This document shows, in pieces, positions 22,021-35,243 of a stretch of 35,584 nucleotides of DNA. The translations under genes were made by a program, and so were the position numbers. Each line of letters begins with the position of its first letter. The first letter of the stretch is position 1. The notes under the pieces are model-generated. The model saw only the letters and a program-made list of their open reading frames with translations, did not search any database and was not told the origin of the DNA. The DNA lies in contig JABABG010000105.1 in assembly GCA_014238315.1 (NCBI GenBank), forward strand, positions 1 through 35,584. Reading direction: 5' to 3'. Source of the stretch: Alphaproteobacteria bacterium (GTDB taxonomy: Bacteria > Pseudomonadota > Alphaproteobacteria > JABAAW01).

Positions 22021-24771
22021 CTATATCTGTACGTTCAGGCGCCCATCTTGGCGTAGTTGTAATTTGTCGATGTTTGCAGGCAATATATCTTCATCGGCGA
22101 TAGCCTCACCCTCGCCATCATTGCCTTCCTCACCTGCTTGCGCTACTTGACTGGTAGTAGCCTGCGCATCGTCACCTTGTGCATCTTGTTTCCCTTGTCC
22201 TTGCAAGCCAAACTGCAAGCCTTGATCCTGTGTACGAATTCCTGCTTCTTGCAATGCTTGTTCTAGCTGCCTTGCATCTCGCTGTAATAGATCGAGCGTT
22301 TCGCTACGCTCGGCGAGCACTACGATCTGCAAACGCCCTGCTGCATCGCCGTCGAGTCTTATTTCTATGCGCCCTAACATTTCTGGTCGCATTTTCACGG
22401 TCATGCTATCGACCTTTCCTTCGATTGCTCGCTGAATGTTTACAAAGACTTGCTCACGAACAAAGGAGCTAGCGGTCGCGAAGTTGGAAGCAGCCCCAGC
22501 CCCACCTCTTTGCGCTACTGAGCCAGTAGAACTTTGCGAGAAAGCGTTGCCGCTGGATGCGTCCGAGTTAGAACCCGTTGAGCCAGAAAAGGATTGGCCA
22601 AACCGAGATTCTAGAGACGCTTGAGAAGAACGAGCCCCCGCCTCCTGTGCGAACTCACCTTGCGCGCGATTCCCATTTACAGCCTCACTGCGTCCTCCAC
22701 CCGTTGCCAGACGCGATGCAAGGTAATGCAGAATGTTTTTAGCACGATTGTTTGGCTGTGTGCTTTTTTCGCTTGCATGGGTTTGACTGGCTAGTCGCTC
22801 GCGCGCCTCTTGTGGACGAGTGTTGGCACCATTGTTTTGATTGCCTGCCTCTAGGTTGGCGTTGGGAACGGAGTTTAGCGTAGCTAAACCATTATTGTTC
22901 AAAGTGCTTGTAGTAGCTTGACTACCACCGTTGCCCACCTGGGTAACCCCTGATGTAACCCCCTGGCTACCCCCTTGGGCTAAGTTGTTAGGATTAGCCA
23001 CTAGATTATTGTTGCTACGAGCTTGCGACGATGCTCCAAACGCATTTGCGCCACTCAAGCGCACGGCTTCTGGATTATGCGCCTTTACATCAACTTTTGT
23101 CTGTATATCTACCTCTGGCAGATTACTATTCGCCAGTGCTGCGCTAGCGGCACGCTCTGCTGCTGTCGGCGGGACCAGACTACTTGCTGGCACAGCCGCT
23201 TGACTGGAACCAGCACCTTGCGAGTTTGCAAGGTTACCATTAGCTAGGTTAGTAGCAGGGTTTTGCGCGAGACTTTGTGTAATGCTGTTAGTTGCTGTGT
23301 TAGTGGAGCCAGAAGCGAGGCTCGCCTCCTTAGCCGCTACCTGACTAATAGTGCTGGACGCCGCTGCTCTTGTTATAGCTAGCTGGCTAGCTTTCAAAAC
23401 ATCGCTAGCCTTTTGCTGATCGATAGTATCAACCTGCGTTGTAGCGAGCGACGAGGCTATTGCATTACCATTCTTTTCTATGCCTTCAGCATTTTTTGCG
23501 AGTTGCTGGTCTTGGTTAGCTCCGCTTTGCACTTCTTGTGCTACATTTAGGTTGTTCGCCCCGCTGTTCAACTCTCCTGCGTTGAGGTTGGGTTGTAGTT
23601 TCTCTACCTCGGATTTTGACGGGGCTGATGATTTTTGCGAAGCTGTTTGCTCTACAGCATTATTTCCAGCCAGAGCGGCGTGAGCATTATTTCCAGCCAG
23701 AGCGGCGTGAGCATTATTTCCAGCCAGGGCGGCGTTAGCATTATTTCCAGCCAGAGCGGCGTGAGCATTATTTCCAGCCAGAGCGGCGTGGTCAGAACGA
23801 GCTATAGAAGGATTTTTGCTAGCATCCTGAAGGTCAAAGACATCAATCGATTCCTCTCGTATCAGGCTCGCGAGTTGACCGTTATTGTCATTCCCATTAG
23901 CCGCGAGAGCGTTTGCTTTTCGAGTATTTTCATCAACGACATTTTCCTCTATTACCTTTCTCAAGTTTTTTTCGTCATCACCCCGCCCTGCTATCGAGTT
24001 TTTTCCGACTTCTTTGCTATCGCCCGCCTGCTTGTCGCCTATGGTTTCTTTTGCGTCTGTAGATTTCGCTGTTGCGCCAGCTATGGCGTCCTGTTGTTGT
24101 GGGTTATATTGCGCGTCCTGATGAATTTTATCTAGCGCTCCACTCTGCTCTCGATAACCAGCCTCAATGCCATTTTTCCCATCCCTTTGTTGCAGGTATC
24201 TTTCTGCGGCTTCTGCGTCCTGCGCCGAGCCGTAATTTTTATCACGCCCTCCCGCACGCCCGCTCCTTTCTACCGAGGAGGCTCTAGCTTGCTCTCTATT
24301 TTGCCTACGAGCTTCTTCCAATCGTTCTTGTATCAGTTGTTGCTCTCTAATGTTTTCGCTGAGCCTATCGAACGCTCTATCTGCTTCTGCGTGTGCATTT
24401 TCGGCTTGATCTTGCGAGTATTCATTATGTTGATGATTTTGCTGTCTTTGCGCCTGCGCCTCACTTTGTGATTTTGCTATTGCATTATCCTGCGCCAGGT
24501 TTTCAGCGCTATCCCTTCTATAGTATGAGATTTCGCGTGCTCCTGCCGAGTTTAGAGCATTATCTTTGAGTTTAGGGTATGGCGGTAGCAAGCCTTCTGT
24601 TCTGCTACTTATTTTAGTTATAAATCTCTCTGGTCCTTTCACGCCATCACCGAGCACATCAGAAAACAGACTAGCTCCTTTTTGCACTATTTTTTGTGCA
24701 GTTTGCCTTTCAGCCTTCTGTTCGGAGTTCGCAATTGCATTTAGCGAATATGTTGGAAGTGTTCTATCCAT
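22021..24771 (-). CDS. fliK: Flagellar hook-length control protein FliK
   Basis: 916 residues from the ATG at 24771 (the track start at 24840 is a GTG with a weak ribosome site; GGGAG precedes 24771). Only the C-terminal domain is conserved: VDSMTVKMRPEMLGRIEIRL then LQIVVLAERSETLDLLQRDARQLEQALQEAGI, the FliK substrate-switch domain. The rest is a long hydrophilic, Ala/Asn/Gln/Ser-rich region of low complexity, as expected for the ruler part, but at more than 900 residues it is about twice the length of enteric FliK. Around residues 330-375 are five in-frame copies of a 9-residue unit AALAGNNAH. The location before flgD-flgE and a sigma-54 promoter upstream support the call. Confidence 0.9.
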   Translation of the reverse strand: MDRTLPTYSLNAIANSEQKAERQTAQKIVQKGASLFSDVLGDGVKGPERFITKISSRTEGLLPPYPKLKDNALNSAGAREISYYRRDSAENLAQDNAIAKSQSEAQAQRQQNHQHNEYSQDQAENAHAEADRAFDRLSENIREQQLIQERLEEARRQNREQARASSVERSGRAGGRDKNYGSAQDAEAAERYLQQRDGKNGIEAGYREQSGALDKIHQDAQYNPQQQDAIAGATAKSTDAKETIGDKQAGDSKEVGKNSIAGRGDDEKNLRKVIEENVVDENTRKANALAANGNDNNGQLASLIREESIDVFDLQDASKNPSIARSDHAALAGNNAHAALAGNNANAALAGNNAHAALAGNNAHAALAGNNAVEQTASQKSSAPSKSEVEKLQPNLNAGELNSGANNLNVAQEVQSGANQDQQLAKNAEGIEKNGNAIASSLATTQVDTIDQQKASDVLKASQLAITRAAASSTISQVAAKEASLASGSTNTATNSITQSLAQNPATNLANGNLANSQGAGSSQAAVPASSLVPPTAAERAASAALANSNLPEVDIQTKVDVKAHNPEAVRLSGANAFGASSQARSNNNLVANPNNLAQGGSQGVTSGVTQVGNGGSQATTSTLNNNGLATLNSVPNANLEAGNQNNGANTRPQEARERLASQTHASEKSTQPNNRAKNILHYLASRLATGGGRSEAVNGNRAQGEFAQEAGARSSQASLESRFGQSFSGSTGSNSDASSGNAFSQSSTGSVAQRGGAGAASNFATASSFVREQVFVNIQRAIEGKVDSMTVKMRPEMLGRIEIRLDGDAAGRLQIVVLAERSETLDLLQRDARQLEQALQEAGIRTQDQGLQFGLQGQGKQDAQGDDAQATTSQVAQAGEEGNDGEGEAIADEDILPANIDKLQLRQDGRLNVQI
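23657..23791. repeat. Tandem 27-bp repeat x 5 inside fliK
   Basis: Five 27-bp units begin GCATTATTTCCAGCCAGAGC on the plus strand, with one to two base changes in the third copy and at the array end. They encode AALAGNNA(H/N) on the minus strand, in frame. Near identity of the copies suggests a recent expansion. There are no spacers. Confidence 0.95.
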
Positions 24772-24932
24772 TTTATTTACTTTTCTCCCATTAAACTTTC
24801 GATTTTCGTGTATTTTTGTATTTCTAAACTGCGTTGCCACCGAGCTTTGCTATTGCCATCGCTTTATTGCGATATTGTTTTCTACTGCGCCGTTTAGCTT
24901 TTACCTATCCACCGCACTACCTTTGTATGCAA

Positions 24933-29795: not shown

Positions 29796-31841
29796 GTGCG
29801 CAAAACCGCGGACGATAAAAGGAGCGAAACGCCTCGCTTAGGCGGGCGAACGCGAGGAGGTTTTAAATCTAAAAAAGACGAAACGCTGGAACGAACGCAT
29901 GACGCCAATCGTAAAATTAGCTCTAGACGAGCTAGTGGCTTTTTGGCAACCACGATAGGAGATAAGCCGCGCGTTCTGATAGTCGGCAGGCCTAATACTG
30001 GAAAATCGACCTTATTTAACCGATTGTTGCGCATGCAACGCTCTCCGACGACCTCCGTTGCTGGCATGACTCAGGATTGGATAGAAGGCGAACTGATGCT
30101 ACCTAATGGCTCTCTGAGCTTGATCGACACTGCGGGAGCCGAGTTAGATGGGGTCAATAAGAACTTAGACAAACAGTGCTACGCTCAAGCTTGGCATAAG
30201 ACACGCGAGCTGTTAGAGGAGGTTGCGTTAGTTTTATTTGTGCTAGATGCTCGTACGGCTTTGACATCTATTGAGCTTGACCTTGCGAAGATACTAAGAG
30301 GCAAAAGGGTAATAGTTGTAGCGAACAAGGGCGAGGGCTTAGAGAATGTACCTGAGCCTTGCACGAGCCTTGGTTTTGCAGAGCTATTGCTAGTATCGGC
30401 TTTGCAAGGGCAGGGGATAGGAAGGTTACTCGATTGTATAGATAGATTAACTTTTCCCGAACGACCTTGCGGAGTTGTTTTGCGGGATAGCTACTCTAGT
30501 AGCTACTCTGGCGCACCTATCGCATCTAGCGAACCTTTACCACGAGCTTCTTCTTGCTTTTCGCTTGCGCTATTGGGCGTACCGAATAGCGGCAAGTCTA
30601 CGCTTGCCAACAGGTTGTTAGGCGATGAGAGAATGCTAGTATCGGAGATAGCTGGCACCACGCGTAACGCGGTAGATGCGCTGTGGCATTGCGGAGACGA
30701 GTGCGCGACGATAGTTGATACAGCTGGCTTGCGTAGAAGGAGCAGGGTTTCCGCTAGCGGCGATCCTATAGAGGAAGCCTCGTCTCGAGATTCGCTTAGA
30801 TTTCTACGCATGTCGTCGGTTGTTGCTTTAGTGATAGATTCTCCGAATTTATTTTCGACTAGTTTGCCTTTCGGACCTTATGATTCTAAGTCGTTTATGG
30901 ATTCGACGACTTCTTTGCCACCGCCAACGTCACCCCCTGCCTCTAGCGAGAGTCCACCGCACGAGCAACCGCCGATGCCACCCCCTACCCCTGGTGCTCG
31001 CCCGCCGCACGAGCAACCGCCCCATCAAGCTAGACGTTCTCTGTCATCTTTGGAGGGTGGGGGGATCAAGAAACAAGAATTAATCATTGCGAAACGCGTA
31101 CTAAATCGTGGAAAACCCCTTATGCTGCTTATGAATAAATGGGACTTAGTTTCGCATGCGCAACAAAAAGTAGTGCTCAAAGAAATAGTAGGTTCCCATG
31201 TTTTGCCAGATTTTCAAGGGCTGCCGATAATAACTCTGTCGGCTCTATACGATAGCAACTTCTCGGTTATGTTTAAAACCGCTAAAAAACTGCACTACCT
31301 AACTACTAGAAGAGAAAAAACCGCTAAAGTGAACGCATGGCTGGAACAAGCGCAAAAAATACATAGACCTCCAATATATCGGAGTAGACAAATAATATTG
31401 CGATACGCTAGCCAAGTAGATGCAGCTCCGCCGCTATTCGTAATTCACGCCAATGCGCCAGTCGCAAATGACTATGTTCGGTACCTAAAAAGCTCGCTCA
31501 GGAGATTCTTCGATTGGCCAGCCGTGCCAATAGTCATGAAAGTAATAGTAAAAGAGCAGGGGCGGGCTGGAGCAAAGAGAGTGGAGGGGGTAAAAGCAAA
31601 AGAGGTGGCAGGACAAGCAAAAGCAAAAGGGGTGGGGCGGGCTGGAGCAAAGAGAGTGGAGGGGGTAAAAGCAAAAGGGGCGGGACAAGCAAAAGCAAAA
31701 GGGGCGGGGCAAGCAGGGATAAAAAGAACAGAAACGAAAAGGGTAGGAGTGAAAAAAGCAAGCGCGAAAAAAAGCGTGAAAAAACAGCATAGGAGTGAAA
31801 AAAACAAACGCGAAAAAACAAACGCGAAAAAACAAACGTGA
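29796..31841 (+). CDS. der: Ribosome-assembly GTPase Der (EngA) with extra domains
   Basis: 681 residues; Der is normally 440-490. Start is GTG with AGGGG upstream. A basic 55-residue leader precedes G domain 1: GRPNTGKST (64-72), DTAGAELDG, NKGEG (178-182; the alphaproteobacterial variant of NKxD). G domain 2 has GVPNSGKSTL (261-270), AGTTR, DTAGLRRRSRV (308-318) and NKWDLV (447-452). Between its G3 and G4 motifs sits an insert of about 75 residues (350-425) rich in Pro, Ser and His (PPHEQPP twice). The KH-like domain follows (about 495-583), then a Lys/Ala/Gly/Arg tail (587-681) built on a 25-residue repeat (GRAGAKRVEGVKAK). Der matures the 50S subunit. The core motifs are all there, so it is likely functional. 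Confidence 0.92.
   Translation: MRKTADDKRSETPRLGGRTRGGFKSKKDETLERTHDANRKISSRRASGFLATTIGDKPRVLIVGRPNTGKSTLFNRLLRMQRSPTTSVAGMTQDWIEGELMLPNGSLSLIDTAGAELDGVNKNLDKQCYAQAWHKTRELLEEVALVLFVLDARTALTSIELDLAKILRGKRVIVVANKGEGLENVPEPCTSLGFAELLLVSALQGQGIGRLLDCIDRLTFPERPCGVVLRDSYSSSYSGAPIASSEPLPRASSCFSLALLGVPNSGKSTLANRLLGDERMLVSEIAGTTRNAVDALWHCGDECATIVDTAGLRRRSRVSASGDPIEEASSRDSLRFLRMSSVVALVIDSPNLFSTSLPFGPYDSKSFMDSTTSLPPPTSPPASSESPPHEQPPMPPPTPGARPPHEQPPHQARRSLSSLEGGGIKKQELIIAKRVLNRGKPLMLLMNKWDLVSHAQQKVVLKEIVGSHVLPDFQGLPIITLSALYDSNFSVMFKTAKKLHYLTTRREKTAKVNAWLEQAQKIHRPPIYRSRQIILRYASQVDAAPPLFVIHANAPVANDYVRYLKSSLRRFFDWPAVPIVMKVIVKEQGRAGAKRVEGVKAKEVAGQAKAKGVGRAGAKRVEGVKAKGAGQAKAKGAGQAGIKRTETKRVGVKKASAKKSVKKQHRSEKNKREKTNAKKQT
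31562..31711. repeat. 75-bp direct repeat, two copies, in the der 3' end
   Basis: A 41-base identical core starting GCGGGCTGGAGCAAAGAGAG begins at 31562 and again at 31637, period 75 bp; the remainder of the second copy has a 3-bp deletion and base changes. Shorter AGCAAAAG units occur within. It keeps the reading frame of the Der tail. Confidence 0.85.
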
Positions 31842-31927
31842 AAAAATAGCGAAAGAAAATTAGTAGCCGAAAAAAACAAAGCAAAAAAATAGCGCAAAAA
31901 ATACCAGCAAAAAATCTCAGATGGGTT

Positions 31928-32109
31928 CTAGCGTACAGACCTACTCTCAATCGTAGAAACAAATATTTTCATAGCTAGGAAACCTATCCCGCATAATCCT
32001 AATCGTAGCAATAGACTTATCGCCTAGCACAAAATGCCTGCCAGGCTTTCTCGTAGGCTTTCTCGTAGCCTCTCCCGTAGTCCGACACTACCAGTAAAAA
32101 TCCAGCGCA
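31928..32109 (-). pseudogene. Decayed duplicate of the 3' end of the DNA methyltransferase gene
   Basis: The minus strand from about 32109 to 31928 is a diverged copy of the last fifth of the methyltransferase gene at 32195-33103. One frame reads GRHFVLGDKSIATIRIMRDR then FPSYENICFYD and stop, against GRHFVLGDKSIAAIRVMRDR then FSSYENICFP in the intact gene. A 37-bp block is identical; the next 59 bases differ at eight sites, all transitions, five of them silent. Upstream of that the frame is broken by indels and a 12-bp tandem duplication (32044-32067), and the FAGSGTT motif is lost. Similarity extends past the stop codon (31891-31927 versus 32158-32194), so the duplication included flanking DNA. 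Confidence 0.85.
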
Positions 32110-32159
32110 AAAAATCCAGAGCAGGAAAACAACGCAAGAAATCCAGAGCAGGAAAACAG
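32106..32159. repeat. Tandem 27-bp repeat, two copies, between the two methyltransferase ends
   Basis: Units CGCAAAAAATCCAGAGCAGG... (32106-32132) and CGCAAGAAATCCAGAGCAGG... (32133-32159) differ at two bases. They lie exactly between the decayed and the intact 3' ends and share the CGCAAAAAAT word with both, so the array may mark the junction of the duplication. Confidence 0.85.
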
Positions 32160-32194
32160 CGCAAAAAATACCAGCAAAAAATCTCAGAAGAGCT

Positions 32195-33103
32195 CTAGCG
32201 TGCCGACCTCTTCCCTAATCGAGGAAAACAAATGTTCTCGTAGCTAGAAAACCTATCCCGCATAACCCTGATCGCAGCAATAGACTTATCGCCTAGCACA
32301 AAATGCCTGCCATGCTTCCTCGCAGCCTCCCCCGTAGTGCCGCTACCAGCAAAAAAATCTAAAACCCAATCGTCCGGCAACGAGTGAACTCGAATAATGC
32401 GCTCGACAATAGCAAGCGGCTTTTGATTGGGATAACCCGTTCGCTCCCGACCTTGCGTCGCAACTATCGTCTGCCACCATACATCCGTCGGCGTCTTACC
32501 CCGTTCTGCCTTCTCAGCACCAACAAGACCTGGCGCCAAATACGGAATACGATCTATCGCATCGTAGTTAAAGCAGTAGCGAGACGAATCCTTGCTATAC
32601 CAAAGAATCGTATCGTGCTTGGCAGACCATTTCTTTTTTGAACGCGCGCCAAAGTCGTAGGACCAAATTATCTCGTTTTGAAAACAATCGCGTCCAAAAA
32701 CCTCGTCCAGCATAACCTTCGCATAGTGAGACTCGCGGCAATCCAAGTGCAAAAATAGTGAACCTTGAGGGCTCAATACTCGATGCGCCTCCGTCATTAT
32801 TTCTCGTAGCCAAGAAATATAGTCCGCGCGCTTGTCGTCGTAGCCGATCCGTGATACCTCTTCGCGCGCGTAAAGACGATCACCAAAACCACGATAGAAA
32901 GATCGGGCGCGATTAGCTACCGTAGAGCCAGAGCCCGTAGCCTCCTTGTCCGATAGTTGTCTACAGCGCAACTGACGCAATTCTTGCCTCTTGCCAGTAT
33001 TAAAGGGCGGGTCGACATAAACTAAGCCAATCTGCCCATCCGATAAAGAACGCAAAAGCGTCTGGCAGTCGCAATGATAAACGCTATCGGCTTGTAGGAG
33101 CAA
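32195..33103 (-). CDS. Site-specific DNA methyltransferase (N4/N6, beta-type)
   Basis: 302 residues. Transfers a methyl group from S-adenosylmethionine to an amino group of adenine (or cytosine). The catalytic motif DPPF is at 31-34 (VYVDPPFNTGKRQ) and the cofactor motif FAGSGTT at about 251-257, an order found in beta-class amino-methyltransferases. PNQKPLAIVERIIR lies between them. It is shorter than CcrM and lacks a CcrM-type C-terminal domain. No restriction endonuclease or specificity subunit is adjacent, so it is an orphan or epigenetic regulator. The only start ahead of DPPF is TTG at 33103, with an in-frame stop a few codons upstream. A damaged copy of its 3' end lies beside it. Confidence 0.88.
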   Translation of the reverse strand: MLLQADSVYHCDCQTLLRSLSDGQIGLVYVDPPFNTGKRQELRQLRCRQLSDKEATGSGSTVANRARSFYRGFGDRLYAREEVSRIGYDDKRADYISWLREIMTEAHRVLSPQGSLFLHLDCRESHYAKVMLDEVFGRDCFQNEIIWSYDFGARSKKKWSAKHDTILWYSKDSSRYCFNYDAIDRIPYLAPGLVGAEKAERGKTPTDVWWQTIVATQGRERTGYPNQKPLAIVERIIRVHSLPDDWVLDFFAGSGTTGEAARKHGRHFVLGDKSIAAIRVMRDRFSSYENICFPRLGKRSAR

Positions 33104-33178
33104 TGAGACTAACTCTTATCCGTAAAACTATAGCCACAAGCACGCGCTAGATGCGCCACCCACAGACTGATAAAAAAC

Positions 33179-33224
33179 AGCTGATAAAAAATAATAGAAC
33201 AAGCTGATAAAAAGCAATAGAACA
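33179..33224. repeat. Tandem 23-bp repeat x 2
   Basis: AGCTGATAAAAAATAATAGA+ACA (33179-33201) is followed at once by AGCTGATAAAAAGCAATAGA+ACA (33202-33224), with two differences. It is in the spacer upstream of the methyltransferase. Further on (33271-33330) lie three or four degenerate GCTAACCCT words and an 11-bp stem TTGCGCTAGCT/AGCTAACGCAA after the tauC stop codon. Confidence 0.8.
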
Positions 33225-33336
33225 ATAGGCTCTTGCAAGCAAGGCGGACGCGGGGGAGAGGTAAACCTTGTTGCGCTAGCTAAACCCTTGCAGCTAACCC
33301 TTTGGCAACTAACCCTGGCAGCTAACGCAAAGAGAG

Positions 33337-34326
33337 CTATACCTTACCCTTCCAAGGTACCAAGGTGCGCTCGACCCAACGCATAACTAGGTCAAAGCAG
33401 TAAGCTATAAGACCGATAACGATGATACCCAAAAAGACGATGTCCGTCGCAAGATAACGCGCCGCGTTCAAAACCATAACTCCCAAGCCCGCCTTCGCCG
33501 CAACCATCTCGGCTGCAACTAGAGTCGTCCAGCCAAACGCTATCGCAACCCGCATGCCAGTCAAAATCTCAGGCAACGCGCCCTTCAAAACCACATGCCA
33601 AACAACTTGACGCGAAGTCGCACCCATCGAATACGCGGCATGAATCTGTTCGATCGAGACAGAACGAACTCCAGCACGAGCGTTCAGGGCAAGAGGCGCA
33701 AAACACGCAAGGAAAATCAAAATAATCTTCGAAACATCGCCAATACCAAACCAAATGATAGTCAAAGGCAAGTACGCAAGAGGCGGAATCGGGCGGTAAA
33801 ACTCAATTGGTGGGTCAAAAACCCCTCGCGAAACACGACTCATACCCATCGAAATGCCAATAGGAACTCCAACTATAACCGCAAAGCCAAAAGCGGTGAA
33901 TACTCGCTGAAGACTAGCAAAGGAATGCTGCAACAAAGTGCTGTCGTTAAAGCCAACGCACTTATCGGGGGTCAAATTGCTCAAACCCAAGTAATTCTGA
34001 AACTCTTGCAAATATGTCGGCACACAAGAAATGCGCAAAAACTTCGACCAAACAATCTCAGGCGGTGGTAAAAATAATGGCGGAACCCAACCATAAGAAG
34101 TGGATATCCACCAAGATGACAATATCGATGCAATCGTAAAGATGCTAATCAATCCGCTTTTGCCACTACCAGGCGCGCCGTAGGAATCTATAGCCTTAGC
34201 CTCGCCAGCACTTCCTTTGCCAGTTCCTTTTGCGCGGCGACCAACAAAAGTACCCCACCACATATCAACGCGCGATGCTAATGAGGTAGAAGAAACTTTC
34301 TTCGATGTCGTTTTAGCTGGGCTCAT
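33337..34326 (-). CDS. tauC: ABC transporter permease, TauC/SsuC-like
   Basis: 329 residues, longer than typical TauC (about 275) because of a hydrophilic N-terminus of about 58 residues rich in Lys, Ser and Gly. The permease part has about six helices and the strongly TauC-like block FDPPIEFYRPIPPLAYLPLT, IWFGIGDVSKIILIFLACFAPL, ARAGVRSVSIEQIHAA with the EAA loop following, GALPEILTGMRVAIAFGWTTLVAAE and the C-terminal VERTLVPWKGK. Also a 20-residue insert around CVPTYLQEFQNYLGLSN. Imports taurine or another sulfonate with TauA and TauB. AGGAG precedes the ATG. It is 65 bases downstream of tauB; that gap has two CTCTAGTAAA copies and an AGTGCT/AGCACT stem. Confidence 0.88.
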   Translation of the reverse strand: MSPAKTTSKKVSSTSLASRVDMWWGTFVGRRAKGTGKGSAGEAKAIDSYGAPGSGKSGLISIFTIASILSSWWISTSYGWVPPLFLPPPEIVWSKFLRISCVPTYLQEFQNYLGLSNLTPDKCVGFNDSTLLQHSFASLQRVFTAFGFAVIVGVPIGISMGMSRVSRGVFDPPIEFYRPIPPLAYLPLTIIWFGIGDVSKIILIFLACFAPLALNARAGVRSVSIEQIHAAYSMGATSRQVVWHVVLKGALPEILTGMRVAIAFGWTTLVAAEMVAAKAGLGVMVLNAARYLATDIVFLGIIVIGLIAYCFDLVMRWVERTLVPWKGKV

Positions 34327-34391: not shown

Positions 34392-35243
34392 CTAGAACTC
34401 TGCCTCCTCCTCGCCATGGATGATAGAAAGAATCTTCTCGCGCATGTCTATGAAGTCCGAACGAGATTTAATCTTGCGAGCGTCTCCCTTGTCCAAAAAA
34501 TCTTTCCAAAATGTTAGATCGTATTCGTGCGTTATCCGACCAGGGCGAGGCGACATAACTATCAATCTGGTCGCCATAAACAACGCCTCTTCAACGCTGT
34601 GCGTGATGAAAAATACCGCCTTATGAGTCTTATGCCAAACATTCAAAACTAACTCTTGCATCGTCTCGCGCGTGAAGGCATCAAGCGCACCTAAAGGCTC
34701 GTCCATAAGTAATATCTCAGGGTTCGAGGTCAATGCCCTCGCCAAGCCAACCCGTTGCTGCATGCCACCAGAGAGCTGGAAAATAGGATGCTTTTCAAAA
34801 TCCCTCAAGCCTACCAAATCCAAATTAGCGCGCGCTATCTTTATCCGCTCCCTCTCTCCCACTCCTTGCAACTTCAAGCCGAAAGAAACATTTTGCAAAA
34901 CATCAAGCCACGGTAGCAAGGCGTGCTTTTGAAAAACAACTCCGCGATCCTTACCAGGACCCATAACCTCCTCAAAAACAACCCCGCGAGAGCGGTCGGG
35001 ACCCTCAACCTCAGAGCCCTTCATCAAAATACGACCACTCGTAGGCTTGATGAAGCCAGCCATAACATTCAACAACGTCGTCTTACCACAACCAGAGGCA
35101 CCAAGCGCAACGATAAACTCGCGCTCCTTCATCGCCAAGTTGACATCGTTCAGAGCGACAACATCGCCAGAACCCAAACTCGCCGGAAAAACAACCCCTA
35201 TCTTCTCAAGGCTTAACGCGTGTTGTGATGAAACCTTACTCAT
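34392..35243 (-). CDS. tauB: ABC transporter ATP-binding protein, TauB-like
   Basis: 283 residues. Walker A GASGCGKTT (48-56), signature QLSGGMQQRVGLARAL, Walker B ILLMDEPLGALD and H-loop FFITHSVEEALF are intact. The segment RGVVFQKHALLPWLDVLQNV with the Q-loop glutamine at Q105 and the PRPGRI element are typical of taurine/sulfonate/nitrate importers. A 14-residue unit is duplicated in tandem just before the Q-loop: EVEGPDRSRGVVFE (78-91) and EVMGPGKDRGVVFQ (92-105). GGGAG precedes the ATG. It is the first gene of the tauB-tauC unit inside the window; tauA, if present, would lie beyond 35584 or elsewhere. Confidence 0.9.
   Translation of the reverse strand: MSKVSSQHALSLEKIGVVFPASLGSGDVVALNDVNLAMKEREFIVALGASGCGKTTLLNVMAGFIKPTSGRILMKGSEVEGPDRSRGVVFEEVMGPGKDRGVVFQKHALLPWLDVLQNVSFGLKLQGVGERERIKIARANLDLVGLRDFEKHPIFQLSGGMQQRVGLARALTSNPEILLMDEPLGALDAFTRETMQELVLNVWHKTHKAVFFITHSVEEALFMATRLIVMSPRPGRITHEYDLTFWKDFLDKGDARKIKSRSDFIDMREKILSIIHGEEEAEF
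34929..35012. repeat. 42-bp in-frame tandem duplication inside tauB
   Basis: Two 42-bp units code for residues 78-91 and 92-105. Both contain RGVVF; the DNA has diverged, though AAAAACAAC-CCGCGA is still shared. Only the downstream unit keeps the Q-loop glutamine. Confidence 0.85.

What the first reader, a model, noticed from the sequence alone, without database searches (positions are those of the whole stretch)
31891..32363. Decayed partial duplication of an orphan DNA methyltransferase gene
The 3' end of the methyltransferase gene (32158-32363) and a region downstream (31891-32109) are paralogous. A 37-bp block is identical; the neighbouring 59 bases differ at eight sites, all transitions, five silent in the old frame, and six would be G:C to A:T if the intact copy is ancestral. 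The upstream half of the fragment is frameshifted and carries a 12-bp tandem insertion. This may be a scar of a second methyltransferase allele that was mostly deleted, or a tandem duplication now decaying. It could reflect a history of changing methylation specificity at this locus.
Basis: seen in the sequence. Interest (0 to 1): 0.6.

Follow-up and report, generated by a model that had tools for sequence, protein, structure and literature searches.

The report
Decaying duplicate of a methyltransferase gene end
A short stretch next to a DNA-methyltransferase gene is a second, broken copy of that gene's last ~190 bases, probably made by a local copying slip in a genome rich in such repeats; it is an ordinary pseudogene scrap with no sign of a function.

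Summary
Positions 31881-32100 are a diverged copy of the 3' end of the methyltransferase gene and its immediate downstream sequence (32148-32355). The alignment score is 134, against a maximum of 19 in 500 shuffles. The best explanation is a lineage-specific partial tandem duplication, now a pseudogene fragment. The nearest relative (83% identical protein) and two more distant ones keep the same gene neighbourhood with a single methyltransferase gene and no fragment. The fragment shares this gene's own derived bases. It differs from the gene at 15 of 117 coding bases, against 43% divergence at fourfold sites between gene and sister, so it arose after the split from the sister. A 14-16-bp direct repeat (TACCAGCAAAAA-TC) marks both ends of both copies and occurs nowhere else in the window, pointing to slippage or recombination between short repeats. 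The genome is rich in tandem repeats. 'Second allele' and 'changing specificity' are not supported: the fragment starts at motif I and lacks the catalytic DPPF motif and the region before motif I where target recognition is expected. Low interest.

The parts
32195..33103 (-). Intact N6/N4 DNA methyltransferase gene, 302 aa, TTG start; DPPF (motif IV) near the N-terminus, FAGSGTT (motif I) near the C-terminus
   Evidence: ORF; Pfam N6_N4_Mtase 1.5e-46; PADLOC MTase_II 1.7e-114; other matches in its genome, apart from the fragment, are at most 41% identical
32148..32355 (-). Source copy: last ~52 codons of the methyltransferase plus ~45 bp after the stop
   Evidence: alignment
31881..32100 (-). 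Decayed second copy: motif I to C-terminus in broken frames, 12-bp in-frame tandem insertion, post-stop sequence retained
   Evidence: alignment and shuffles; tblastn 69% identity to residues 242-293, E = 1e-15, one stop
32043..32066 (-). 12-bp tandem repeat inside the fragment; the extra copy is absent from the intact gene and the sister
   Evidence: 32043-32080, period 12
32103..32174 (-). 27-bp tandem repeats between the two copies
   Evidence: D8; 32106-32174, period 27, 2.5 copies
31902..31916 (+). TACCAGCAAAAAATC, direct repeat at the left end of the fragment
   Evidence: motif occurs only at these four places in the window
32089..32102 (+). TACCAGTAAAAATC, direct repeat at the right end of the fragment
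32169..32183 (+). TACCAGCAAAAAATC, direct repeat just after the stop of the intact gene
32344..32359 (+). TACCAGCAAAAAAATC, direct repeat inside the intact gene (codes for DFFAG of motif I)

Best explanation
The 3' end of the methyltransferase gene with its downstream flank was duplicated in tandem in this lineage, most likely by replication slippage or recombination between short T/A-rich direct repeats (GATTTTTTTGCTGGTA inside motif I and GATTTTTTGCTGGTA after the stop). Shown: homology, single-copy state in relatives, age after the split from the sister, broken frames, repeats at the unit ends. Inferred: the slippage mechanism, and that the copy is unexpressed and drifting neutrally, with small further duplications (12-bp, 27-bp) added later.
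For: Score 134 vs shuffle maximum 19. Conserved der / methyltransferase / tauC neighbourhood with one methyltransferase gene and no fragment in L009 (83%), L010 (67%) and L011 (63%). Der and methyltransferase stop codons are ~25 bp apart in the sister against 353 bp here. Three-way codon comparison: gene-fragment 15/117 differences, gene-sister 27, fragment-sister 30; fourfold divergence of gene and sister 0.43. Amino-acid changes assignable to one side fall on the fragment, while those assigned to the intact gene are silent. Four occurrences of the 14-16-bp motif, all at copy ends, spaced 187, 80 and 175 bp; 187 = 175 + the 12-bp insertion. Own genome: 9.5 tandem-repeat rows per 10 kb and 4.35% of bases, against 5.9 rows in the sister, 2.7 in a congener and 1.0 in loci from distant bacteria.
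Against: The exact breakpoints cannot be fixed because the region is repeat-rich and A/T-rich, and the post-stop GATTTTTTGCTGGTA could be a product of an earlier duplication and not the seed. The two long identical runs together are slightly more clustered than random (P = 0.024), which leaves room for limited gene conversion. The counts used for polarisation are small.
Confidence: 0.88

Rival explanations
1. Scar of a second, full methyltransferase allele (imported or a full-length duplicate) that was mostly deleted.
For: The fragment includes coding and downstream sequence of a methyltransferase.
Against: The fragment shares the derived bases of the adjacent gene against the sister. The copy begins at a short repeat inside motif I that also lies after the stop, as expected for a direct partial duplication. 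No relative has two genes here.
Confidence: 0.06
2. Assembly artefact: two strain variants of the gene end joined in tandem in a draft assembly.
For: The genome is in 130 contigs and is 84% complete; no reads are available here.
Against: Coding divergence of 13% with frameshifts and a 12-bp insertion is not like a co-assembled strain variant of an intact gene, and the spacer carries its own tandem repeats.
Confidence: 0.04
3. The fragment is maintained for a function, such as a donor for gene conversion of the methyltransferase C-terminus or a spacer between the convergent der and methyltransferase transcripts.
For: Two long identical runs (37 and 31 bp) are mildly clustered (P = 0.024).
Against: The longest run alone is not significant (P = 0.096). 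No terminator-like hairpin lies in the fragment and no Rfam family matches there. The fragment is absent from relatives.
Confidence: 0.02

Closest known systems
Partial tandem gene duplication and pseudogene fragment formed between short direct repeats (replication slippage or illegitimate recombination)
   Same: Direct orientation, adjacent to the parent, short repeats at the unit ends, broken frames, absent from the sister species
   Different: Nothing categorical; one unit end lies inside the conserved motif-I codons
Beta-class N6/N4 DNA methyltransferases (N6_N4_Mtase, e.g. RsrI, CcrM)
   Same: The intact parent gene has the family domain and the order DPPF before FAGSGTT
   Different: The fragment holds only motif I and the C-terminus and cannot be a complete enzyme

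Membership tests
Partial tandem duplication / pseudogene fragment | Significant direct-orientation homology to an adjacent intact gene | tested here: met
Partial tandem duplication / pseudogene fragment | Disrupted reading frame | tested here: met
   frames and stop codons
Partial tandem duplication / pseudogene fragment | Absent at the syntenic site in relatives | tested here: met
Partial tandem duplication / pseudogene fragment | Relaxed selection on the copy | tested here: inconclusive
   several amino-acid changes on the fragment against a similar number of silent ones; silent changes only on the gene side; counts small
Duplication between short direct repeats (slippage) | Short repeats at the unit boundaries | tested here: met
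Duplication between short direct repeats (slippage) | Pre-duplication sequence carrying both seed repeats, seen in a relative | tested here: not met
   the sister contig has the motif-I copy of the repeat (with one base changed) but none after the stop; the seed after the stop is therefore inferred
Remnant of a second full methyltransferase allele | Sequence closer to another allele or species than to the adjacent gene | tested here: not met
Beta-class N6_N4 methyltransferase (parent gene) | Pfam N6_N4_Mtase domain with DPPF and FAGSGTT motifs | tested here: met
Beta-class N6_N4 methyltransferase (fragment as an enzyme) | Catalytic DPPF motif present | tested here: not met
   the fragment begins at motif I

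The most novel reading that the evidence does not exclude
The fragment exchanges sequence with the intact gene by gene conversion and thereby diversifies or repairs the methyltransferase C-terminus.
Probability: 0.02. Interest if true: 0.4.

Novelty: new member of a known kind. Interest (0 to 1): 0.12.

Why it matters
It matters little on its own: it is a clear, datable example of a partial gene duplication decaying beside its parent. The wider point, if it holds up, is that this genome carries more tandem repeats than its relatives, so gene ends and intergenic regions here should be read with that in mind.

Tried and rejected
A second allele from another species: rejected by the three-way comparison. 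A dispersed repeat family: a DNA search of the own genome finds only three short (29-45 bp) matches, all to the A-rich stretch at about 31870-31915, and no further copy of the fragment. An RNA or terminator element: no Rfam match in the region, and the only terminator-like site lies inside the intact gene. Defence context: PADLOC gives a strong match only for the methyltransferase itself, and the adjacent genes are der, tauC-like and tauB-like, not an endonuclease. Literature searches: none of the ten papers listed for partial duplication looked relevant to bacteria by title, and the relatives' bin names gave nothing; no paper was read.

Full report
Observation. Aligning 31881-32115 with 32141-32375 gives a local alignment of 31881-32100 with 32148-32355, score 134, while 500 dinucleotide shuffles reach at most 19. 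Mechanical repeat finding reports the same pair at 267-269 nt spacing, as 112 nt at 88% and 99 nt at 76%. There is also a 12-bp tandem insertion, which is in frame; the frame is lost through a 2-bp insertion upstream of it and an indel near the end. Over 197 ungapped columns there are 25 mismatches, 19 of them transitions.

The parent gene. The intact gene (32195-33103, minus strand, 302 aa) is an N6/N4 DNA methyltransferase (Pfam N6_N4_Mtase, E = 1.5e-46), with RsrI and CcrM methylases among its solved relatives. It lies between der (29796-31841, plus strand; TIGR03594) and tauC-like and tauB-like genes (33337-34326, 34392-35243, minus strand). In its own genome (1.54 Mb, 130 contigs) the other matches, apart from the fragment, are at most 41% identical.

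Relatives. The nearest relative found, an alphaproteobacterial metagenome-assembled genome (L009, the same contig as in genome G004), has an 83% identical methyltransferase in the same order between der and tauC, with only about 25 bp between the stop codons of der and the methyltransferase, against 353 bp in the window. L010 (G001, 67%) and L011 (G002, 63%) keep the same neighbours. None carries a second copy or a fragment at this site. A fourth genome of the genus, G003, has no match above 37% identity but is only 69% complete.

Origin and age. In 39 aligned codons the fragment differs from the gene at 15 of 117 bases, the gene from the sister at 27, and the fragment from the sister at 30; gene and sister differ at 43% of comparable fourfold sites over the whole gene. 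The fragment shares bases that the gene has and the sister lacks, including codons that change the amino acid (H12, I20, D28). The duplication is therefore younger than the split from the sister and came from this gene. By the script's count, eight changes fall on the fragment, five on the gene, and two cannot be assigned; the last codon aligned (CCT/TAC) lies at an indel and its assignment is not reliable. One of the six apparent G:C>A:T changes (ATC/ATT) falls on the gene side and one (GAG/GAA) cannot be assigned. The fragment is lower in G+C (0.436) than the gene end (0.496). Leaving out that last codon, the gene's three changes are silent, while the fragment has both amino-acid-changing and silent ones, which fits relaxed selection on the fragment; the numbers are small.

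Mechanism. The motif TACCAG[CT]AAAAA-TC occurs four times in the whole window: at 31902, 32089, 32169 and 32344, that is, at both ends of both copies. The spacings are 187 bp in the fragment and 175 bp in the gene, the difference being the 12-bp insertion. On the coding strand the motif is GATTTTTTTGCTGGTA, the codons for DFFAG of motif I. Slippage or recombination between such repeats would give this unit. This is inferred. The sister has the motif-I copy with one base changed but no copy after the stop, so the seed after the stop was not seen in a relative. The breakpoints cannot be fixed because the spacer (27-bp tandem repeats at 32103-32174) and the flanks are themselves repetitive. A survey of 819 kb of the own genome (80 other contigs up to their first 20 kb, plus the window) gives 9.5 tandem-repeat rows per 10 kb and 4.35% of bases in such repeats, against 5.9 and 2.38% in the sister, 2.7 and 1.19% in G001, and 1.0 and 0.6% in 56 loci from more distant bacteria. 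The samples differ in size, contig length and G+C, so the contrast is indicative. The region 31.5-33.3 kb is dense with such repeats. Most of the other long local duplications in the survey lie inside single open frames; this one spans a gene end and the intergenic region.

Significance of the identical block. A run of 37 identical bases is not unusual at this divergence (permutation P = 0.096); the two longest runs together give P = 0.024. This is weak, was one of two statistics looked at, and does not establish gene conversion.

Specificity. The fragment starts at motif I and carries only the C-terminus. In beta-class methyltransferases the order is DPPY/F, target recognition region, then motif I (own knowledge of the family; the gene shows DPPF before FAGSGTT). 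The fragment therefore says nothing about past specificities.

Verdict. A real, lineage-specific, partial tandem duplication of a methyltransferase gene end, now a pseudogene fragment, of an ordinary kind. Confidence 0.88.

Noticed in passing
31540-31841: The der gene ends in a Lys/Ala/Gly-rich tail built of 75-bp, 46-bp and 14-bp tandem repeats; the sister's Der (L009) has a shorter, different Lys/Asn-rich tail.
   Followed up: partly
window and G000 as a whole: Tandem-repeat density in the surveyed half of this genome is about 1.6 times the sister's sample, 3.5 times that of a congener and 9-10 times that of loci from distant bacteria.
   Followed up: partly
23656-23790: Five copies of a 27-bp repeat at 96% match inside an ORF with a FliK-type flagellar hook-length domain (22021-24840).
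   Followed up: no
33162-33326: The methyltransferase-tauC intergenic region also carries 23-bp and 13-bp tandem repeats.
   Followed up: no
L009 4139-4350: In the sister contig a run of N inside tauC is flanked by a 57-bp direct repeat, which looks like a scaffolding overlap.
   Followed up: no
L122 3447-5146: A tandem duplication of about 1 kb at 74% identity within one 1402-codon open frame in the own genome.
   Followed up: no
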